A DNA stretch of 39,543 nucleotides from a virus. The stretch spans positions 1 to 39,543 of IMG/VR virus record IMGVR_UViG_3300033145_001218; one strand, given 5' to 3'. Positions 22,849 to 37,862 of the stretch are shown here, one piece after another. Position numbers and translations under genes: made by a program. Positions within the stretch are counted from its first letter, which is position 1. Each line of letters opens with the position of its first letter. Under the pieces are notes generated by a model, which did no database searches, was not told the DNA's origin, and saw only the letters and a list, made by a program, of their open reading frames with translations.

Positions 22849-22956
22849 TCACAGACCTAGCGCCACACGCGCCTGGCGCCGGTCGATCGAGTAGTACCTG
22901 TAGCCGCCCTCTTCCGCAGACCTCAGCTCCACCCCGGCCGCCTCGTCGTCAACCAT
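22849..22956 (-). CDS. 35-residue ORF downstream of the DUF1643 gene
   Basis: ATG at 22956 (minus strand) overlaps the end of the DUF1643 gene by eight bases. The peptide starts MVDDEAAGVELRSAEEGGYR and ends with RVALGL. An acidic start and aromatic GGYRYYSIDRR centre look protein-like. The overlap supports co-translation, but the gene is too short for a family call. Its 3' end contains a short inverted repeat (GCGCCA 22860-22865, TGGCGC 22874-22879) without a T-run, facing the convergent lysis operon. Confidence 0.45.
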   Translation of the reverse strand: MVDDEAAGVELRSAEEGGYRYYSIDRRQARVALGL

Positions 22957-23464
22957 GGCTATTTGATGCCCCCGGGGTCTGAGCCCAGGCCTCAGGCGTG
23001 GTGCAGGCTCGCAGATAGAGCGGGTGCCGCGGGTGACCGTCCTTGGTCAGGCCGAGGTGATGGACGGGCCCGGCCGCCGCCAGGATCTCGACGACGGCCT
23101 CAACACGCCCAGAGACGCCGGCGCGGCTTGAACCAGAACCCCACCCTGCAACGACCAGGTCGGGCCCGGCGTCGAGGGCTGCGCGGATCGCCGCGTCGTT
23201 CCCCGAGCCCACAGGATCCTCGGCGTCGGCGAGCTCGCGGGGGTCGGTGGCTCGGAAAGCGAACAGGTTGACCACCGTCAATCCGGCAAGCCCGAACGCC
23301 TGAGAGAAGCCGATCAATCTCCGGACCGTTGGGTCGTCGACCATCGCGTCGGCCGTTGATGGATTGAGCATCACCCAGAGGGCGTGTCCTTGGCCGAGCA
23401 GCCACCGGCGCGTGAGGCTGTAGCGGTACTGGCCGCACAAGCTGAAGACTGCGTCCCTGATCAC
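22949..23464 (-). CDS. DUF1643 family protein
   Basis: The preferred start is GTG at 23464 (reading MIRDAVFSLCGQYRYSL), giving 171 residues; the frame is open further upstream to 23551 but that part is proline/glycine-rich and unlike the family. Family hallmarks are WVMLNPSTADA, DDPTVRRLIGFS, VVNLFAFRATDP, DPVGSGNDAAI and a final HPLYL. DUF1643 proteins are common in phages and their hosts and have no established biochemical role. It is encoded opposite to the lysis genes and lies next to attP, a usual place for accessory genes. Confidence 0.85.
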   Translation of the reverse strand: MIRDAVFSLCGQYRYSLTRRWLLGQGHALWVMLNPSTADAMVDDPTVRRLIGFSQAFGLAGLTVVNLFAFRATDPRELADAEDPVGSGNDAAIRAALDAGPDLVVAGWGSGSSRAGVSGRVEAVVEILAAAGPVHHLGLTKDGHPRHPLYLRACTTPEAWAQTPGASNSHG

Positions 23465-23594
23465 GCCACACCCCCGGTCACCACCTGGCACATCGCCCCC
23501 GGCACCCCGAGCGCCACCTGTCCCGGTGACTGTCCCGGTCGACTCGCGCAAGGAGCTGATTTCAGGTGATCAGGGCCGCACCCAGTGGAGCGAA

Positions 23595-23664
23595 AACGCG
23601 TGTAGTTTCGCAGAGTAAGCAGCCTTCCAAGCTGAGGGTCGTGAGTTTGAACTTCATCGCCCCC
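23595..23664 (+). pseudogene. Degenerate tRNA-Gly(UCC)-like sequence
   Basis: GCAGC-CTTCCAA-GCTGA (23619-23635) matches an anticodon arm with UCC anticodon (four of five stem pairs). GTGAG-TTTGAAC-TTCAT (23641-23657) matches a T-arm with two wobble pairs and a C-to-T change in the usual TTC. Upstream, GTGTAGTTT resembles the start of a tRNA-Gly. The acceptor halves do not pair and there is no CCA, so it is not a working tRNA. It may be a decayed phage tRNA or an old attachment site. Confidence 0.5.
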
Positions 23665-23685
23665 GGGTTGCACTCCGGGTTGCAC
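23665..23685. promoter_or_regulatory. Left pair of GGGTTGCAC arm-type repeats
   Basis: GGGTTGCAC occurs at 23665-23673 and 23677-23685, 12 bp apart. The same nine bases occur twice more to the right of the tRNA core (23901-23922). Paired direct repeats on both sides of an attP core are the expected layout of integrase arm-type binding sites. Integrase binding is inferred. Confidence 0.7.
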
Positions 23686-23788
23686 TTGTTGATTGGTCTC
23701 CGTCGACACACCGCGACAAAATGCGACCTTAGCCACCAACGATCCCGGGCATTTACGAGCAATCACGGGCCCAGAATCCGGACCATGC

Positions 23789-23837
23789 AACCTTGCCAAG
23801 GTTGAAGTCGCGAGTTCGAATCTCGTGTCCCGCTCCA
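23789..23837 (+). other. attP: attP core: 3' half of tRNA-Gly(GCC)
   Basis: The 49 bases read as the 3' part of a bacterial tRNA-Gly(GCC): anticodon arm ACCTTGCCAAGGT (loop CTTGCCAA), T-arm CGCGAG-TTCGAAT-CTCGTG, acceptor strand GTCCCGC, discriminator T and CCA. The matching 5' half (GCGGGAC at the 5' end) is absent, so this is not a tRNA gene but the segment that restores a host tRNA gene after integration. The integrase gene ends 113 bases away, and arm repeats flank the core. Confidence 0.88.
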
Positions 23838-23851
23838 AAAACGACAACGGA

Positions 23852-23878
23852 AACGCCTCGGTAACCCGGGGCGTTTTT
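23852..23878 (+). terminator. Intrinsic terminator downstream of the tRNA-Gly core
   Basis: AACGCCTCGG (23852-23861) and CCGGGGCGTT (23866-23875) form a 10-bp stem with one wobble pair and a TAAC loop; the T-run is 23874-23878. It probably serves the restored host tRNA after integration, and would also stop plus-strand transcripts reaching the integrase region. Confidence 0.85.
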
Positions 23879-23900
23879 GTTGGTGCCCCAGGATCGGGCC

Positions 23901-23922
23901 GGGTTGCACATTTGGGTTGCAC
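23901..23922. promoter_or_regulatory. Right pair of GGGTTGCAC arm-type repeats
   Basis: GGGTTGCAC occurs at 23901-23909 and 23914-23922, 13 bp apart, between the terminator and the integrase stop. The second copies of the left and right pairs also share the next two bases (TT), suggesting a longer consensus GGGTTGCACTT. Integrase binding is inferred. Confidence 0.7.
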
Positions 23923-23949
23923 TTCTTTGGGTGGGGTCATCAGGGCATC

Positions 23950-25215
23950 TTATCGGGATTGGCCACGGCCATCCGCAAACACCAGCTCCACCACCGCCGC
24001 CGCCGCTGCATCGCGCTCGCCCCGCTTGACCGTCGCGTAGATCCCCTGCGCCTTGTCGGTCCGCCACCCGGCCACCGCGCGCCGCACCAGGTCCTCGACG
24101 CCGGCTTCGCGCAGCAGATCCTCGAAGGTCCGGCGCAGCGCGTGCGGTGTGATCCGCGGCACCTTCGCCCTGTCACACGCGGCCGCCACCGAGGCTCGGA
24201 TCGCCGATTGGCTACGATACCAGACGATGTCATCGCCACGCCGGCCGAGCCCGTGGCCTGGCGACGCGGGGAAGATCAGTCCAGACTCGAGGCCGGGGTG
24301 TTGTCGCTCCAGCAGCCACCGGCGCTGTTCTTCGATGGCCTGCTCGAGCGGACCAACTAGCGTGACCCTTCTGGGGTCGTCGGTCTTTGTCGCCTTCACC
24401 TTGCCGCGCCACACGGACCGCTCGATGGCGAGCTCGCCGGCGGCGATGTCGTCGAACCGCAGGGCGATCACCTCTCCGATGCGAGCCCCGGTCCAACTCA
24501 GCGCAACGACGGCGCGCGCCAGGTCCGGAGCGATGCCATCGCCGTGACCGCGCTGACCGTGTTTCCCCTCGGCGTGTGCGGCGACCCGTTGGCGCTCGAC
24601 TTCCGCGCCGATCTCGCCGAGTCGCGTGACGGCCTTTAAGAAGCCGCGGAATTGATCAGCAGACAGGGACCTCCCCCTGGCTCCTTTCGTGCGCGCCTCG
24701 GGCAATGTGGCCAGAGCACGCGCCGAATTTGAGGCGACTACGCCATCATGCATCGCGCGATCCAGAATGAGGCGCAACGTGCGCAGCCGGCCGTTGACCG
24801 TCGGCGCAGCGTGGGCTTTGCGCGCATCATCTTGCCATGTGTCGAGAGCGTCGACGGTGATCGCGTCGACCCACCATCCACCGAAGTCGAGGATCAGATG
24901 GGCGGTGTCGTTGGTGTAGCGCTCGAGCGTGGAGGCGGCGAGGTTACGCTTGGCGTCGTGTCGTTTGAGCCAGCTCGTCGCGAAGCTCTCGAACCTTGGC
25001 CGTGTGGGCCTTGCTCCGATCTGCGCCGGCTGCAGGCCGGCCCTCTCCTCGACGGCCGCCTCGAGTGTGCCCTCGACGATCTTGTGCCGCTGGGCTCGCC
25101 GGCCCGTCTTCGGGTCGGTCCACGTCCGTCGGATCAGGTAGCGGCCGTCGGGCAGGCGCCGGACGCCCGGGTAGCGGGTCGGCTGGGCGTCGGGGCGTTT
25201 CTTGATCGGGGTCAT
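23950..25215 (-). CDS. int: Tyrosine integrase (tRNA-Gly site)
   Basis: A 421-residue site-specific recombinase that inserts the phage at a tRNA-Gly. The N-terminal about 65 residues (RYPGVRRLPDGRYLIRRTW) form an arm-binding-type domain, and about 75-170 is the core-binding SAM-like domain. The catalytic set is R245 (TGARIGE), K277 (KATKTDD), H358-x-x-R361 (HALRR), W384 in place of the second histidine (as in Cre) and Y393 (GIYATV). GAGGAGGAG just upstream of ATG 25215 supports this start. The upstream Xis-like frame runs 271 bases into it. The gene ends beside attP. Confidence 0.92.
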   Translation of the reverse strand: MTPIKKRPDAQPTRYPGVRRLPDGRYLIRRTWTDPKTGRRAQRHKIVEGTLEAAVEERAGLQPAQIGARPTRPRFESFATSWLKRHDAKRNLAASTLERYTNDTAHLILDFGGWWVDAITVDALDTWQDDARKAHAAPTVNGRLRTLRLILDRAMHDGVVASNSARALATLPEARTKGARGRSLSADQFRGFLKAVTRLGEIGAEVERQRVAAHAEGKHGQRGHGDGIAPDLARAVVALSWTGARIGEVIALRFDDIAAGELAIERSVWRGKVKATKTDDPRRVTLVGPLEQAIEEQRRWLLERQHPGLESGLIFPASPGHGLGRRGDDIVWYRSQSAIRASVAAACDRAKVPRITPHALRRTFEDLLREAGVEDLVRRAVAGWRTDKAQGIYATVKRGERDAAAAAVVELVFADGRGQSR

Positions 25216-25381
25216 CGACTCCTCCTCGGATGAATCGGTCGAGCATCTCGACGCTGAAGCGTTTCGAGCGTCCTACCTTGCCGTCCGGCGCGAGCTCGCC
25301 GCGGGCCATCATCTTGTAGACCTGGGCGCGGCAGACGCCGAGGTGGGTTGCCGCGGCGGTGAGGGTCAGCCAGGTGGTCAT
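24944..25381 (-). CDS. xis: Excisionase-like HTH protein overlapping integrase
   Basis: ATG at 25381 (overlapping the upstream stop, ATGA) opens a frame of 145 residues. Residues 1-55 are a typical excisionase/HTH_17 domain: LTLTAAATHLGVCRAQVYKM, then ARGELAPDGKVGRSKRFSVE and MLDRFIRGG. The rest is proline/arginine-rich and overlaps the integrase 5' end in another frame for 271 bases. Either the long tail is translated, or the frame is open simply because of GC bias. Xis proteins bend attachment-site DNA and direct excision. Confidence 0.72.
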   Translation of the reverse strand: MTTWLTLTAAATHLGVCRAQVYKMMARGELAPDGKVGRSKRFSVEMLDRFIRGGVDDPDQETPRRPADPLPGRPAPARRPLPDPTDVDRPEDGPASPAAQDRRGHTRGGRRGEGRPAAGADRSKAHTAKVRELRDELAQTTRRQA

Positions 25382-25671
25382 GGTGCCTTTCCTGACAAAG
25401 GCAGCTCGTCCAACGTCAAAAAGGCCTCCCGGCAAACCAACAAGGCGTGGAAATCGTATTTCTTGGCCCGCCGGCACCTGGTCGTCATCAGTGCGGCGCC
25501 GACCGTCCTCGCATACCCGGTCTCGGCGGCCGACCTCGCCACCGTGTAGCGAGCCCGCGCCCTGGTCTCGGCGATCGCGATGCCAGTGACACCGCAACAG
25601 GTGATCTCCCACGCCTTCCAGTCGTAGCTCACCCGCGGTGGAGAGGTGGCCGGCTCATTACCTCTGCTCAT
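25378..25671 (-). CDS. Conserved-type small phage protein upstream of xis
   Basis: ATG at 25671 with AAAGGT eight bases upstream gives 97 residues. The middle (AIAETRARARYTVARSAAETGY, as two adjacent helices) resembles small phage proteins with an arginine-rich helix, followed by CRRAKKYDFHALL. The stop overlaps the xis start. I recognise the type but no function. Confidence 0.65.
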   Translation of the reverse strand: MSRGNEPATSPPRVSYDWKAWEITCCGVTGIAIAETRARARYTVARSAAETGYARTVGAALMTTRCRRAKKYDFHALLVCREAFLTLDELPLSGKAP

Positions 25672-25717
25672 CGTCGTTACCTTTTCGCATGATCGTGCCT
25701 GGCGCGACGCCACCTGT

Positions 25718-26522: not shown

Positions 26523-26950
26523 CACGGGCTCCACTCGATCGACTCGTGCTTGCCGGCGGCCTCCTGCGCCTTGCGCACGAAGTCGGAAAACGGCGCCAGG
26601 TCCAAGACCTTCGGGTCATCACTCGACCAGTCCACAGGCAGTGCGGCGATAGACGCAGCGAAGGCCTCGCAGGCCTCCTCGGTCGATACGCCAAAAAAAC
26701 CACGGTGGACGTAGGCGCACAGCCCGGTTGGAATGTGATCAAGACGACCACCGCGGACCCACAGTTCCTCGCCGCATGAATGTGGCGCGAAGATCTCCCG
26801 GACAGCGAAGTGTTGCTGGACCCGGTAGGCCGGTGTGCGGTCGATCGCGATGATGGGTTCTTTCCCGACCACGCCGTCCTCTGCGTTGGCCTTCCTGAGC
26901 TCGACTTCGTTCACCGGCCCGTAGGCAACCTTGTAGGTGTCGACAGCCAT
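26522..26950 (-). CDS. Hypothetical protein downstream of ParB
   Basis: ATG at 26950 overlaps the ParB stop (ATGA), giving 142 residues beginning MAVDTYKVAYGPVNEVELRK. It has an acidic, mixed alpha/beta composition with GEELWVRGGRLDHIPTGLCA and a helical end (FSDFVRKAQEAAGKHESIEW). No family was recognised. The position suggests a partner of the ParB-like protein or simply a shared transcript. Confidence 0.6.
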   Translation of the reverse strand: MAVDTYKVAYGPVNEVELRKANAEDGVVGKEPIIAIDRTPAYRVQQHFAVREIFAPHSCGEELWVRGGRLDHIPTGLCAYVHRGFFGVSTEEACEAFAASIAALPVDWSSDDPKVLDLAPFSDFVRKAQEAAGKHESIEWSP

Positions 26951-28593
26951 CAGCTCGCCTTCTTCTTCCGCCGCGGCGCCTTCTTCGCGGCCTTCTTCTT
27001 CGCCGGCTTGGCCTTGGCCTTCTCCTCGGCCGCCTTCGTCTTGGCCTCGGCCTTGAGCTTGGCGCGCAGTTCCTCGGTGACCTCCTTCTCGACCTTGTGG
27101 CGATCGATCCCCAGGCCCAGGCCGGCGAAGACCGGGGTGGCGCTTAGATCCGTTTCCCTGTCGAGCTCGAACAACACGACCGCCCGGGCCTCCGCCGGGG
27201 TCATGCGCAGCAGGTGCTTGGTGACCGTTTCCTGCTCCTTGGATGACAGCGGGAGCCAGGAGCTCTTGGCGATCTCCACCCAACCGAGAGCCTCGGCGAG
27301 TTGACGTCCACTGTGCCTGCCCCCGAACAGCCCCTCAGCGAGATTGCGCACGAACGCCGAGTCATCCCCGGGGAGCCGCGCGACCATGCGCGCCATCCAT
27401 CGCCTGTTGGTCTCTTCGTCGATGTCGTCCCAGCTCGGCTCAGGGGCATTGACCTCCCCCTTGCCCGAGCTCGTCGAGGCCCCCGAGGCCGCCGCCTTCG
27501 GCCGGGGCGGATACAACCGAGCCTTGTCCTCGGGGGCCAAGGCCTTCTTCGCCTCCTTGAGCTCATAGACCTCCACCACCTCACCTGTCGTCGGGTGCTG
27601 GGTCACGGACGGCTTCAGGGCCTTGCCCACGAACCCCTTCCACGACTTGGCCCGCCCCTTCCTCGGAACGGCCTGAGACGGGCTGTCCTTAGCCAACACG
27701 AGCCCGCGCTGGAGGCCGGCGTAGTATTTGTCGTGCCCGAATACCTCCTTCGTCTTGAGCACCGGCTGCCCCTGGGCCTCGGCCTTCGCCTTCGCGCGCT
27801 CCCAGTGTGCCTTGACCTTCGCTGCGTGGCACTCCGGGTTGGTGCAGACCTCCGGCTCGTCGCCAGCGAGCGACCCGAACAGATCCGTCTGGTTGCCAGA
27901 TCGATTCGGGCAGGTGGTGCAGGCGCCGACGTCGACGAGCAGCCCGGCGTCCTTGGTTGGAAACGGCGCGCGTCTGAGATCTTCAGTGAACGGCCGGAGA
28001 CGTCGGGCAGCCTCCCTGTAGCGCATTGGCGCCTCGCCACTGGGCGACGCGACCACCTTGAGCGCCTTGTCCTGCAACTTGCCCTCGAGGCGGGTCAACA
28101 AGAGCGCAACGCCGGCGCCGATCAACTCACCCTCGAGCGCTTCCCGGGCCTTGGATCCAAGGTCGTTGGCGAGCTGGAGACGCTTGGAGACGTGCGACTT
28201 ACTCTTGCCCACCTTGGCGGCGATGTCTTCGACATCCATGACGCCGCCGGCGATGATGGCCCGGTACGTGTCGGCCTCGTCGAGGGGGTCGACGTCGTCG
28301 CGCTGGCAGTTCTCCACGAGCTGTGCTTCGAGGACCCCCGCATCGTCGAGGTCGCGGACGTTGGCGGGGATCTTGTCGAGGCCGGCGGCCGCGGCCGCGC
28401 GCAGGCGTCGGTGGCCAAACACGCACTCATACGGCCTTCCTCCTCCATTCGGCGCCGGCCGCACCAGGATCGGCTGGTAGATGCCGCTGGCGCGGATGCT
28501 GGCCTCGAGCTCGTCGAGGTCGCGGTACCGTCGCCGGGGCTGCGTGGAGCTCTCCTGGATGTGGTCGATTGGGATGGTCTGTTGGGTATCCAT
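26950..28593 (-). CDS. ParB-like DNA-binding protein
   Basis: ATG at 28593 with GGAGGACATCA upstream gives 547 residues. The N-terminal ParB/Srx domain has PILVRP (about 41-46) and the box II-like FGHRRLRAA (59-67). A helix-turn-helix follows (about 121-143, VEDIAAKVGKSKSHVSKRLQ), then a zinc-like cluster C225, C228, C250 and C255 that is typical of phage and plasmid ParB relatives. The C-terminus is an extreme lysine/alanine-rich tail. No ParA is encoded, so plasmid-style partition is unlikely without a host partner; gene regulation or a replication role fits a lone phage ParB. Confidence 0.85.
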   Translation of the reverse strand: MDTQQTIPIDHIQESSTQPRRRYRDLDELEASIRASGIYQPILVRPAPNGGGRPYECVFGHRRLRAAAAAGLDKIPANVRDLDDAGVLEAQLVENCQRDDVDPLDEADTYRAIIAGGVMDVEDIAAKVGKSKSHVSKRLQLANDLGSKAREALEGELIGAGVALLLTRLEGKLQDKALKVVASPSGEAPMRYREAARRLRPFTEDLRRAPFPTKDAGLLVDVGACTTCPNRSGNQTDLFGSLAGDEPEVCTNPECHAAKVKAHWERAKAKAEAQGQPVLKTKEVFGHDKYYAGLQRGLVLAKDSPSQAVPRKGRAKSWKGFVGKALKPSVTQHPTTGEVVEVYELKEAKKALAPEDKARLYPPRPKAAASGASTSSGKGEVNAPEPSWDDIDEETNRRWMARMVARLPGDDSAFVRNLAEGLFGGRHSGRQLAEALGWVEIAKSSWLPLSSKEQETVTKHLLRMTPAEARAVVLFELDRETDLSATPVFAGLGLGIDRHKVEKEVTEELRAKLKAEAKTKAAEEKAKAKPAKKKAAKKAPRRKKKAS

Positions 28594-28631
28594 TGATGTC
28601 CTCCGGTTGGTTGTTCGAATTCGGACGCGGC

Positions 28632-29120
28632 TCAGCCCAGCGGCGTGCCATCTGGGTTGAGTTGGACGCCGGACCTCGGGTTGTCCGGCGTGTAGGTCTC
28701 CTTCGGAGGTTCCCCGGGCTCGAGCCGCTGGTGGCTGGCCGCGACTCCTGGCCCCTTGCACCCCCGGCAGGTGAACTCGGCCCACCCCTTCATGAGACAA
28801 TGGTCAAGGCACAGCGAGTAGGCGATGCACTCGGGTGCTCGCAGCCCCGGCTCGCCCAGGCAATCACGCGACACCTCCTGCGGTGTGCCGATCGTGATGA
28901 CGCCGGCGGCAAGCCGGGCACTGGCTGTCGATTTACCGGACGGGATCGGCGCTCGCAACGTTTGGCCCGAGAACAACTGCGTCACGCGCTCGACGAGCTT
29001 GTCTATGGACCGCTCGGACATCCACCGTGGGTCAACATCGTCCGGTTCGTAGTCGGACTGGAACCACGCGAGCACGAATTGCTCGGCGCGCTCTCGCGCC
29101 CCCTGCATGGGAGTGACCAC
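28632..29120 (-). CDS. Hypothetical protein with cysteine-rich C-terminal part
   Basis: GTG at 29120 with AGGAA six bases upstream gives 162 residues; ATG at 29108 is an alternative. The N-terminal half is helical (ERAEQFVLAWFQSDY). The C-terminal half has CIAYSLCLDHC and FTCRGCKGPG, spaced as a possible zinc site, and ends in a disordered proline-rich tail. Function unknown. Confidence 0.6.
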   Translation of the reverse strand: MVTPMQGARERAEQFVLAWFQSDYEPDDVDPRWMSERSIDKLVERVTQLFSGQTLRAPIPSGKSTASARLAAGVITIGTPQEVSRDCLGEPGLRAPECIAYSLCLDHCLMKGWAEFTCRGCKGPGVAASHQRLEPGEPPKETYTPDNPRSGVQLNPDGTPLG

Positions 29121-35239: not shown

Positions 35240-36289
35240 ATGAGAGAGTTTTCCAAGATCACGCCGCAGTTCTGGATTGGCGAGACCGGGCGGGAGCTTC
35301 GCGCCCACGGACCCGAGGCCCAGATCGTCGCCATGTACCTGCTGACGGCGCCGACCGCCGGCATGCTCGGTCTCTACTACCTACCTATCCCGACCATCGT
35401 TCACGACACTGGGCTTTCCGCTGAAGGGGCTTCGAAGGGGCTTCGGAGGGTCTGCGAAGGGGGGTTTGCCTCGTATGACGAGATTTCTGGCTTCGTCTGG
35501 GTGCACGAGATGGCCCGGATCCAGGTCGGGCAGCTCTCCTCGAAGGACAACCGGGTCAAGGGCATCCGGCGCGAGTACGCTTCGATGCCTAACAACCCGT
35601 TCTTGGGACCGTTCTTCGAAAAATACACAGGTATTTTCCACATCGAGGAGCGCCGGGAAGGAAGGGGCTTCGGAGGGGCTTCAGAGACCCTTCGAAGCCA
35701 AGAGACAGAGACAGAGATAGAGACTGAGAAAGAGAGAGAGACAGAGACAGATCAAGGGCCCGCTCGCAAGCTCGCGCCGGTTTCTCTCTCCACCCGGCGC
35801 CGTCCCGGCGTCGAACAGGTGCTCGAGCACTACTGTCTCCGGTACCCGAAGCGGCGGGGTCAGGCCCAGAACCCAGACGTCCTCGACCTCGTCAGCGCCC
35901 GGTTAGCCACCCACAGCCCGGAGGATCTGTGCCAGGCCATCGACGGCAACCGGGACGGCGATGACGGCTGGTGGCGGAAAAAGGGACACACAGAGCTCGA
36001 TCGGATCATGGAGAGCGACAAGGCGGTGGACAAGTTCATCGCCCTGGCGGAGTCGGCCAAGGAGGCCGAGCTACCAACCGGCAAGGCCCGGGCGGTTGAG
36101 CTTTGGCCCGTGATTGCCAAGGCCGCCGCTTCCCGCGGGCACATCGAGGACCCGCTCGCCCGAGAGGCGGTGAAGGCGATGGGCGGTCTGCACGTGCTCG
36201 GCGCCATGGGCGTGAAAGACCTTCATCGGGTCGGCCGCGACGGCTTCATCGACGAGTTTGTGAGAGCGGCCGGGAAGGTCGCGTCATGA
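35240..36289 (+). CDS. Replication initiator (O-like/DnaD-like)
   Basis: A 349-residue protein. The N-terminal about 125 residues form a winged-helix-type domain (REFSKITPQFWIGETGRELR, then VAMYLLTAPTAGMLGLYYLP and SKGLRRVCEGGFASYDE). A glutamate/threonine linker (about 154-171, ETETEIETEKERETETD) joins a C-terminal helical domain (VEQVLEHYCLRYPKRRG, then WWRKKGHTELDRIMESDKAV). This plan matches phage initiators that bind iterons with the N-terminal domain and recruit helicase with the C-terminal one. The gene itself contains the iteron clusters described next. Confidence 0.7.
   Translation: MREFSKITPQFWIGETGRELRAHGPEAQIVAMYLLTAPTAGMLGLYYLPIPTIVHDTGLSAEGASKGLRRVCEGGFASYDEISGFVWVHEMARIQVGQLSSKDNRVKGIRREYASMPNNPFLGPFFEKYTGIFHIEERREGRGFGGASETLRSQETETEIETEKERETETDQGPARKLAPVSLSTRRRPGVEQVLEHYCLRYPKRRGQAQNPDVLDLVSARLATHSPEDLCQAIDGNRDGDDGWWRKKGHTELDRIMESDKAVDKFIALAESAKEAELPTGKARAVELWPVIAKAAASRGHIEDPLAREAVKAMGGLHVLGAMGVKDLHRVGRDGFIDEFVRAAGKVAS
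35423..35757. other. ori: Putative replication origin inside the initiator gene
   Basis: Cluster 1: GAAGGGGCTTC at 35423-35433 and 35434-35444, with weaker units at 35445-35455 and 35456-35466, all 11 bp apart. Cluster 2: GAAGGGGCTTC 35661-35671, GGAGGGGCTTC 35672-35682 and AGAGACCCTTC 35683-35693. Each good unit is a near-palindrome (GAAG-GGG-CTTC). A strongly purine-biased tract follows (about 35694-35757). Iterons in the initiator gene followed by a purine-asymmetric tract is the lambda ori plan. Origin function is inferred. Confidence 0.6.
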
Positions 36290-36636
36290 GCAGCGATCCC
36301 GAGGATCTGCTCACGACGGCGGAGGCCGCCAAGGTGCTGCGGTGCTCGGTGTCGTGGCTGGGGCGAGCTCGGCGTGGAGGCCGAGGCCCCGCGTCCACGC
36401 GCATGGGCAGCCTGATCCGGTACCGCCTCGGCGACGTGCACGACTACATCCGTTCCAAGCGGGAGCCGCAATGCCAGACCAGAGACGATGGAGCCGAGAT
36501 GGCATCACCTACTTCGAGCGCGGCGACCGCAGGACCATCTGGGTCGACATCCACGTTGAAGGTCGCCGATTCAAACGAAGCACGCGCGAAACGACTCGGC
36601 AAGCAGCTGAGAGAGCAGGACGCAGAATCCGCGTAG
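36286..36636 (+). CDS. Second Xis/AlpA-like HTH protein
   Basis: ATG 36286 overlaps the initiator stop (ATGA), giving 116 residues. The HTH_17-type domain is clear: LLTTAEAAKVLRCSVSWLGR, then ARRGGRGPASTRMGSLIRYR and LGDVHDYIRSKRE. The last about 55 residues overlap the downstream recombinase in another frame and are serine/alanine-rich. It is probably the directionality factor or regulator for that recombinase. Confidence 0.65.
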   Translation: MSSDPEDLLTTAEAAKVLRCSVSWLGRARRGGRGPASTRMGSLIRYRLGDVHDYIRSKREPQCQTRDDGAEMASPTSSAATAGPSGSTSTLKVADSNEARAKRLGKQLREQDAESA

Positions 36637-37862
36637 AGCTCGAGGCGGAGCTCCACGCGGCCCCGCCCCTGGCTGACCATCACCTGTTTTTGGAGACGTG
36701 GGCCCGTGAGGAAATCCGTCGCACCAGGGAGGCCGCCAAGCATCCCGCCACCGTCAGCGCCCAGATCTCGCGCTGGGTGCAGATCGTTCGCCACCTCGGC
36801 ACCGAGTGCAGGCTCACCGACATCGATGTACCCAAGCTGCGCTGGTACCAACGCCAACGCCGCGACATCGACGGCACCAGGGCCCAGACGATTGTGCGCG
36901 AATGGGGCGCTATCCGGAGGTGCTTCGTGATGGCGCTCGAGCAGCGAGAGGTCCAGGAGCACCGCGAGGTGGCGGACTACCTGCGCAACATGCTCGCTGT
37001 CTGGCCTCGGATGGTGGGGCGCGACCCAAAGTCCGACACGCTCAAGGGACACCTCCGGACGGCCGACCAGATCCGCGCGGTGTGCACTCTGGCGAGCGAG
37101 GACCTGCAGGACATCCTGTTGTTCGCGCTGATGACGGGCCTGCGGCGCGGCGAACTCCTGCGCCTCGAGTTCGGGTGGATCCGTGAGGCGCCGGCGGGGT
37201 TCGACGTGGCGGCCGTGCTCAAGTTGCCCGATGAGTCGGCCAAGACCGACCAAGGCGGCGGTGTGGTTGGGCTCTCATCCCTCGCGCTCGACATCGCCCA
37301 TCGTCGATTCGAGGAGGTGCAGGACCTCGGCGCGAGGCTCTTCCACACGGGGTGCAGCAAGCAGCTGCGGCGCATCAACCGAGAGCTCCACATAGACCCG
37401 CCAGTGAAGCTGCGCGACATGCGCACGACCCATGTGACCTGGTCCAAGCAGGGGGCCGGCCTCGACGCTGCACAGGCGTCTGCGCGCCACTCAGATCCGC
37501 GCACCACGATGGCGTACCTGCGAGAGAACGACTTCTCGCCGGCGGCACTCAAGGCGGTCACGGCCGTGTCCAACCGGTTCGACCCGGCGCCAACCCATGG
37601 ACAAGACAGTGGACAACCGGCTCACCCAACCGGAACACCTACGGCGACGGTGGAGCCCGTGCCTCTCTTCGTCGTTGAAATCAAACCAGAATCGGGCACA
37701 GAAAGCGCGGCCGGCGATGGGGGCCCTTGGCCTCGAAGGCCTCGCGTCCCCTGTCACGGGGCGGACACGGGCGCCTCGGGTGACCCGGGGGCGCACGCGG
37801 GGGGACGGGGACGCACAGGGAGCGCACTGGGCACCGCAACTGACTCGGCGGTGACATCATGA
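36471..37862 (+). CDS. Second tyrosine recombinase
   Basis: ATG 36471 with GGGAG upstream gives 463 residues. The N-terminal part (DGITYFERGDRRTIWVDIHV) is an arm-type or AP2-like domain, then a core-binding domain. The catalytic set is R225 (TGLRRGE), K258 (SAKTDQG), H340 (ARHSDPRTT) and Y349 (AYL). The HxxR position reads R315-D-M-R318, so the first histidine of that box is replaced, which may change activity. A tail of about 95 residues after DPAP is low in complexity. No attachment site was found beside it. It could resolve dimers, invert DNA or be a relic integrase. Confidence 0.8.
   Translation: MPDQRRWSRDGITYFERGDRRTIWVDIHVEGRRFKRSTRETTRQAAERAGRRIRVELEAELHAAPPLADHHLFLETWAREEIRRTREAAKHPATVSAQISRWVQIVRHLGTECRLTDIDVPKLRWYQRQRRDIDGTRAQTIVREWGAIRRCFVMALEQREVQEHREVADYLRNMLAVWPRMVGRDPKSDTLKGHLRTADQIRAVCTLASEDLQDILLFALMTGLRRGELLRLEFGWIREAPAGFDVAAVLKLPDESAKTDQGGGVVGLSSLALDIAHRRFEEVQDLGARLFHTGCSKQLRRINRELHIDPPVKLRDMRTTHVTWSKQGAGLDAAQASARHSDPRTTMAYLRENDFSPAALKAVTAVSNRFDPAPTHGQDSGQPAHPTGTPTATVEPVPLFVVEIKPESGTESAAGDGGPWPRRPRVPCHGADTGASGDPGAHAGGRGRTGSALGTATDSAVTS

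What the first reader, a model, noticed from the sequence alone, without database searches (positions are those of the whole stretch)
23595..23922. attP with tRNA-Gly(GCC) 3' half and symmetric pairs of GGGTTGCAC arm sites
A 49-base identity to the 3' half of tRNA-Gly(GCC), a terminator and four GGGTTGCAC copies (two on each side, 12 and 13 bp apart) sit beside the integrase. This gives a concrete integration site and a candidate arm-binding consensus (GGGTTGCACTT). It also shows that the sequence is in phage order, not an integrated prophage.
Basis: partly seen in the sequence, partly recalled or inferred. Interest (0 to 1): 0.55.

Follow-up and report, generated by a model that had tools for sequence, protein, structure and literature searches.

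The report
Phage attachment site at glycine tRNA
This stretch looks like the docking site a bacterial virus uses to insert itself into a host glycine-tRNA gene, with paired handles for its integrase on both sides; the design is known, but distant relatives keep the spacing of the handles while changing their letters.

Summary
The window is a virus record in phage gene order. Beside its tyrosine integrase (23950-25215, minus strand) lie the 3' part of a tRNA-Gly(GCC) (23786-23837, 51 of 52 bases identical to a real gene), a 17-bp hairpin, and four exact, co-oriented GGGTTGCAC copies, two on each side (steps 12 and 13).

Relatives support the attP reading. A second viral contig (L094, integrase about 45% identical) has the same order with the letters GGGTGTACC. 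In bacterial genomes, related integrases sit beside tRNA-Gly(GCC), Val(CAC) and other tRNA genes. Using each integrase-side repeat as a probe gave a far-end-like site in 3 of 4 searches, two with a partial tRNA; these lie on other contigs, so the pairing of ends is inferred. Pair positions from the anticodon loop are nearly constant (one element is shifted), while the arm letters differ by lineage after a shared GGG.

The proposed consensus GGGTTGCACTT is too long; only GGGTTGCAC is in all four. A decayed tRNA-Gly(UCC)-like piece left of the left arms went unreported.

The architecture is known from mycobacteriophages, so this is a new member of a known kind. No prophage of this phage was found, and protein binding is untested.

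The parts
23665..23685 (+). left arm pair: GGGTTGCAC at 23665-23673 and 23677-23685 (step 12; -128 and -116 from the anticodon loop start)
23786..23837 (+). attP core: 3' part of tRNA-Gly(GCC), from two bases before the anticodon stem to CCA; anticodon loop TTGCCAA at 23793-23799
   Evidence: 51/52 identical to a tRNA gene beside a related integrase; positions; weak Rfam tRNA hit below gathering score
23845..23882 (+). 17-bp hairpin, terminator-like, between core and right arms
   Evidence: z -5.2; an equivalent hairpin lies in L094
23901..23922 (+). right arm pair: GGGTTGCAC at 23901-23909 and 23914-23922 (step 13; +108 and +121)
23950..25215 (-). tyrosine integrase gene (421 aa), 3' end facing attP
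   Evidence: Pfam Phage_integrase 3.9e-9; phrog_1 8.5e-44
25202..25549 (-). HTH_17 protein overlapping the integrase start; excisionase/RDF candidate
   Evidence: (2e-10); an HTH_17 gene also overlaps the integrase in L094 and L024
23620..23662 (+). decayed tRNA-Gly(UCC)-like piece two bases left of the left arms (weak similarity may extend to 23597)
   Evidence: 86% over 43 nt, E 6.5e-8 in G001; local score 72 against a maximum of 40 in 500 shuffles; 5' half alone not clear

Best explanation
This is the attP of a temperate phage with a lambda-type tyrosine integrase. Shown: a partial tRNA-Gly(GCC), a hairpin and two direct pairs of a 9-base repeat lie next to the integrase, and the same layout with other repeat letters occurs in relatives. 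Inferred: the N-terminal domain of the integrase binds the four GGGTTGCAC arm sites and folds the DNA, while its other domains act on the core. The strands are exchanged in or next to the anticodon loop. Integration joins the host tRNA 5' half to the phage-borne 3' half and its hairpin, so the glycine tRNA stays intact on the integrase side, and the far side keeps the left arm pair and the old 3' half. The HTH protein next to the integrase probably directs excision.
For: Window anatomy. A second site with pairs on both sides of the core on one contig, L094. Of 10 integrase hits in 195 genomes, 7 of 10 have a complete tRNA converging on the integrase 3' end; by reading, 2 of 10 have a half tRNA and 1 of 10 has a tRNA in the other orientation. 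Searches with the arm pair of one element gave exactly two places in 4 of 4 searches (three genomes, G001 twice), reversed-pattern controls 0; in 3 of these 4 the second place looks like a far end, two with a partial tRNA and one with a complete tRNA. Pair positions match within a few bases apart from L094's left pair and the G010 element. In three sites the identity to the tRNA begins one to three bases before the anticodon loop (L099, L071, L094). N-terminal domain model: three strands and a helix, pLDDT 74; its structural matches include the lambda Int N-terminal domain (Z 4.3), the HPI integrase arm-binding domain (4.4) and a P4-like integrase domain (4.8).
Against: No prophage of this phage was found: the arm pair appears in 1 of 195 genomes, there in a 12-bp tandem array, and the genome-contig scan gave one relative only, a 40-residue fragment. 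The far ends lie on other contigs than the integrases, so which ends belong together is inferred; the core in L071 differs by one base from that beside its presumed partner L024 and is interrupted. Two distant integrases (L041, L043) have no pair at a step of 11-14, and L039 only a 7-base one, matched by 25 of 1000 shuffles. Z-scores of 4-5 for a 68-residue model are modest, mitoribosome proteins score alike (Z 5.5 and 4.9), and Foldseek gave no match at E <= 0.001. His358 is Gln in L024. The right pair of the window is 3 bases nearer than in the relatives listed at +111.
Confidence: 0.93

Rival explanations
1. The pairs bind the excisionase (HTH protein) or a host protein rather than the integrase, and the integrase arm sites are elsewhere.
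For: An HTH_17 gene sits beside the integrase in 3 of 3 elements scanned for it, so it could have co-evolving sites too.
Against: The pairs stand on both sides of the core in window and L094 and, if the ends are paired rightly, in the two G001 elements, which fits integrase arms better than one-sided directionality sites; letters differ between two elements of one genome (G001), so a common host protein is unlikely.
Confidence: 0.05
2. The site is a dead remnant: a junction between two tandem prophages or a decayed attP that no longer works.
For: A second, decayed tRNA-Gly-like piece lies beside it; two integrases about 110 kb apart in G185 look like tandem elements at one tRNA.
Against: All four repeats are perfect, the integrase frame is open over 421 codons with conserved residues kept, and the core is 51/52 intact.
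Confidence: 0.03
3. The decayed piece at 23620-23662 is a worn-out phage tRNA-Gly(UCC) gene and has nothing to do with integration.
For: The alignment to a tRNA-Gly gene can be carried over nearly the whole gene with gaps, as for a gene and not for a half.
Against: The score of the 5' half alone is reached by 20, 61, 272 and 331 of 500 shuffles for the four reference genes, and in four genomes BLAST begins at the same base in the anticodon stem, as it would for an attP core.
Confidence: 0.55

Closest known systems
Cluster J mycobacteriophage attP (Omega, BAKA; PMC3706429, passages seen)
   Same: attP downstream of a tyrosine integrase; 44-bp core shared with a tRNA gene, about 100 bp from the integrase 3' end, left end of attB in the anticodon loop; flanked by pairs of direct-repeat putative arm sites; HTH genes upstream of int proposed as directionality factors.
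   Different: Core is tRNA-Leu, arm consensus a TGCATAC-like 10-mer; extra inverted sites at the integrase start, for which no inverted pair within 2 mismatches was seen here. No sequence relationship was tested.
Cluster K mycobacteriophage attP (CrimD, Pixie; PMC3203893, passages seen)
   Same: Two pairs of putative arm sites flank the CrimD core with a putative terminator between core and one pair; Pixie and Tweety, related integrases predicted to use one site, do not share arm sequences.
   Different: attP lies 5' of the integrase gene; CrimD right pair is inverted, Pixie has six sites; cores are tmRNA (CrimD) or tRNA-Lys (Pixie).
tRNA-dependent lysogeny phages (PMC10865867, passages seen)
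   Same: Tyrosine integrase, tRNA site, pairs of putative arm sites flanking the core.
   Different: There a 10-bp core fails to rebuild the tRNA and a phage tRNA complements it; here the core carries the 3' part to CCA and the window has no complete tRNA.

Membership tests
attP of lambda-type (arm-binding) tyrosine integrases at tRNA genes | Tyrosine recombinase with conserved catalytic residues (Arg, Lys, His-x-x-Arg, His/Trp, Tyr; motif recalled) | tested here: met
   R245, K277, R361, W384 and Y393 are invariant in 6 aligned sequences, one of them partial; H358 in 5 of 6 (Gln in L024); Pfam and PHROGs hits
attP of lambda-type (arm-binding) tyrosine integrases at tRNA genes | N-terminal arm-binding domain | tested here: inconclusive
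   Domain model (pLDDT 74) matches AP2 and integrase arm-binding domains at Z 3.1-5.7, with unrelated-looking rows at like Z; no Foldseek match at E <= 0.001
attP of lambda-type (arm-binding) tyrosine integrases at tRNA genes | Core identical to a host tRNA part that restores the gene on integration | tested here: met
   51/52 identity to tRNA-Gly(GCC); complete tRNA at the integrase side in 7 of 10 relatives. Restoration in this phage itself is inferred
attP of lambda-type (arm-binding) tyrosine integrases at tRNA genes | Arm-like repeats on both sides of the core | tested here: met
   Pairs on both sides in window and L094; in G001 on separate contigs, pairing inferred
attP of lambda-type (arm-binding) tyrosine integrases at tRNA genes | Integrase binds the arm sites | not testable with these tools
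   needs footprinting or gel shift
attP of lambda-type (arm-binding) tyrosine integrases at tRNA genes | Lysogens of this phage with attL and attR at tRNA-Gly(GCC) | tested here: inconclusive
   No prophage with GGGTTGCAC pairs in 195 genomes; viral and genome scans with this integrase found no close relative
tRNA-dependent lysogeny | Short core that does not rebuild the tRNA, plus an intact phage tRNA of the same isotype | tested here: not met
   Core carries the tRNA 3' part to CCA and ARAGORN finds no complete tRNA in the window

The most novel reading that the evidence does not exclude
In this integrase lineage the arm sites act as interchangeable address labels: a rigid ruler (pairs with a step of 12-13, 229-244 bp between left and right pairs) is kept, the first bases GGG are kept, and the remaining letters are rewritten in each lineage together with the arm-binding domain, while the core can move among tRNA genes, including between glycine isoacceptors. 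In this phage the piece at 23620-23662 would be the trace of an earlier tRNA-Gly(UCC) core. This would give a natural set of mutually blind integrases that tolerate each other in one cell.
Probability: 0.3. Interest if true: 0.55.

Novelty: new member of a known kind. Interest (0 to 1): 0.35.

Why it matters
It gives a concrete, testable integration site and arm motif for a phage whose integrase has no tblastn match in the phage and plasmid collections searched. It also shows that arm sites can be used without binding data: the repeat beside an integrase, used alone as a probe, led to a far-end-like site in three of four searches (one of them already met through its tRNA core). The series of arm sequences at one near-fixed geometry in related integrases is a ready-made set for working out how arm-binding domains read DNA and for choosing integrases that do not cross-react.

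Tried and rejected
Searching viral contigs for GGGTTGCAC tandem pairs gave 15 contigs. None of the 15 loci encodes a relative of this integrase by tblastn at E 0.01; 3 of 15 hold an integrase-like frame somewhere, kilobases from the repeats. They were not used as evidence. The same pattern in 195 genomes gave one place, a 12-bp tandem array in G004 with no integrase or tRNA found there; rejected.

Protein searches with the integrase found nothing in the phage and plasmid collections, and viral-contig scans with it or with A1 found no relative. A scan with A3 found L094 again and L107. A viral-contig scan with the portal protein matched nothing. The genome-contig hit L002 is a 40-residue fragment; its use was to lead to genome G001.

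Rfam gave the core only as a sub-threshold tRNA hit and did not report the decayed piece as a tRNA; its chance-level hits were ignored. The folded decayed piece is no more stable than shuffles (z -0.9). The full-length integrase model was too poor to use (mean pLDDT 41.5), so only the N-terminal domain was searched. The integrase profile gave one weak PDB sequence match, XerA (E 0.0029). A search for GGGTTGCAC-like sites up to 2 mismatches in 23300-25700 found no inverted pair at the integrase start. No arm pair was found near the second recombinase-like gene. L082 and L076, partial glycine-tRNA matches in G017, showed no integrase and were dropped. L077, a contig end in G001 with one GGGTCAGTG copy before the core, was not counted. 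Far ends were sought only for L024, L023, L036 and L037; in G016 the second pair is another integrase-side junction, so no far end was found there. A literature search for GGGTTGCAC listed 15 of 131 papers, none with a title on phage integration; the searches for arm-site literature were made, and passages of PMC8138268 were seen. I make no claim that the geometry rule is absent from print.

Full report
What is there. The window is a virus record of 39,543 bases. Portal, protease, major head, tape measure and endolysin-like genes lie left of the site; a tyrosine integrase, an HTH_17 gene overlapping its start, a CII-like and a DnaD-like loader gene lie right of it. Between them, at 23665-23922, are two direct GGGTTGCAC copies (step 12), the 3' part of a tRNA-Gly(GCC), a 17-bp hairpin and two more copies (step 13), followed by the integrase 3' end. 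The four copies are the only exact ones in the window. Repeats as long at a step of 11-14 occur in 0 of 1000 (left) and 5 of 1000 (right) shuffles.

A second site with the same plan. A DNA pattern for a conserved integrase motif found one viral contig, L094, whose integrase is about 45% identical by tblastn. Read in the same orientation it has a pair GGGTGTACC at -118/-106 from the anticodon loop, a tRNA-Gly(GCC) 3' part, an 18-bp hairpin (z -5.9) and a pair at +111/+124 before the integrase. I did not test whether the rest of that contig is phage. A more distant viral contig (L107, 30% identity) has GGGAGCTACCA pairs with steps 12 and 13, 174 bp apart, with a third, variant copy between them and no complete tRNA found by ARAGORN in the locus.

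Prophages. In 195 genomes of the phylum of G001 (a Bdellovibrionales assembly by the record title of L002), 6 hold integrase matches at E <= 1e-20, 10 matches in all. Beside the integrase 3' end lie tRNA-Gly(GCC) in three genomes (L024, L037, L042), Val(CAC) (L023), Gly(CCC) (L039), Ala(TGC) (L040) and Pro(TGG) (L043), all converging: 7 of 10. By reading, L036 and L041 have half tRNAs; L038 has a tRNA in the other orientation. Repeats of at least 9 bases at a step of 11-14 lie between tRNA and integrase in 4 of 4 of the closer relatives among these 10 (L023, L024, L036, L037) and in 3 of 6 of the distant ones (L038, L040, L042). L039 has a 7-base one, reached by 25 of 1000 shuffles, and L041 and L043 have none. 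Among 1224 tiles of 110 bases from eight loci, the sites themselves included, 26 hold a repeat of at least 9 bases. GGGTTGCAC itself is absent from 11 of 12 integrase loci (the 10, L094 and L107) and occurs once in the twelfth, L037, inside the integrase gene.

Far ends. I searched G001 (twice), G010 and G016 with the arm pair of an element of that genome. Each of the 4 searches gave exactly two places and no match of the reversed pattern. G001:C78 has the GGGAGTATC pair at -127/-115 and a tRNA-Val 3' part whose identity to the gene beside L023's integrase starts one base before the anticodon loop. G001:C86, already met through its tRNA core, has GGGTCAGTG at -127/-115 and a Gly(GCC) core broken by a 73-base insert. 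G010:C108 has GGGAGTACC followed by a complete tRNA-Gly(CCC). The G016 search gave a second integrase-side junction, 93.7% identical over 382 bp (tRNA included), at tRNA-Gly(CCC) instead of Gly(GCC). So in G016 one element family with the same arms is found at two glycine isoacceptor genes. All far ends lie on other contigs than the integrases, so the pairing of ends rests on the arm letters and the tRNA.

The ruler. Right pairs: window +108/+121, L094 +111/+124, L024 +111/+123, L023 +111/+124, L037 +111/+124, L102 +112/+125. Left pairs: window -128/-116, L071 -127/-115, L099 -127/-115, L094 -118/-106. The G010 element has +68/+81 and -176/-163: both pairs are shifted the same way, so the distance between first copies is 244 against 229-238 elsewhere. 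I infer that its exchange point moved towards the tRNA 5' end and that the ruler follows the exchange point. The arm letters are GGGTTGCAC, GGGTGTACC, GGGTCAGTG, GGGAGTATC, GGGAGTACC, GGGTAACCG and, more distantly, GGGAGCTACC: all start with GGG and otherwise differ. The repeats of the distant L038, L039, L040 and L042 are CCC-rich in the same reading direction and do not fit this rule as written.

Integrase. Six aligned sequences keep R245, K277, R361, W384 and Y393; H358 is kept in 5 of 6 (catalytic roles recalled). The N-terminal 68 residues model as three strands and a helix (pLDDT 74). Foldseek gave no match at E <= 0.001. In the VIA-align list of its candidates, AP2 domains and arm-binding domains of P4-like, HPI, lambda, HAI7 and Tn916 integrases appear at Z 3.1-5.7; two mitoribosome rows score alike. 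The matches are modest but consistent.

Decayed piece. Window 23620-23662 matches tRNA-Gly genes of three genomes (one CCC, two TCC) at 84-86% over 43 bases, best E 6.5e-8, and scores 72 against a maximum of 40 in 500 shuffles. Whether it is an old core or a decayed tRNA gene is open; the 5' half gives no clear answer.

Known or new. Pairs of putative arm sites around a tRNA- or tmRNA-derived core, in CrimD with a terminator between core and arms and in Omega-type phages with attP 3' of the integrase, are described for mycobacteriophages (passages of PMC3203893, PMC3706429 and PMC10865867 seen). PMC3203893 already notes that related integrases with one site can differ in arm sequence. This is a new member of that kind; its integrase has no match in the phage collection searched. 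What is added is the comparative series and the near-constant ruler. No binding, recombination or lysogen data exist here.

Noticed in passing
window 36342-37862 (+), with 36286-36492 (+): A second tyrosine-recombinase-like gene (phrog_1 E 4.6e-27; Pfam 21.4 bits, below its cut-off of 27.1) next to an HTH_17 frame (5.6e-10): a second xis-int-like module, with no arm pair found nearby.
   Followed up: partly
window 26950-28800 (-): A 616-codon frame with a strong ParB_N match (6.2e-24) on the same strand as the integrase.
   Followed up: no
L036 and L100 (G010): The integrase side keeps only the 5' half of a tRNA-Gly(CCC), while the far-end-like site has the complete tRNA with a promoter-like TTGACA-17-GATACA just before it, seen by eye: this element seems to supply a new promoter instead of a new 3' half.
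   Followed up: partly
L037 and L102 (G016): Two copies of one element family, 93.7% identical over 382 bp and with the same arms, sit at two different glycine isoacceptor genes, GCC and CCC.
   Followed up: partly
L041 and L043 (G185 contig 1): Two integrases about 110 kb apart, one beside a complete tRNA-Pro(TGG) and one beside only a tRNA-Pro 3' half (by reading), suggesting two elements in tandem at one tRNA gene.
   Followed up: no
L071 (G001 contig 86): The tRNA core is interrupted after GAATCTC by a 73-base insert with a long hairpin; an AbiEii gene and a weak AbiEi match (below cut-off) lie on the arm side, where the window has a DUF1643 gene (22949-23551).
   Followed up: partly
L009, L010, L011, L012, L014, L017: Six viral contigs share a triple GGGTTGCAC array with steps of 12 and 24; an integrase-like frame lies kilobases away in three of them.
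   Followed up: no
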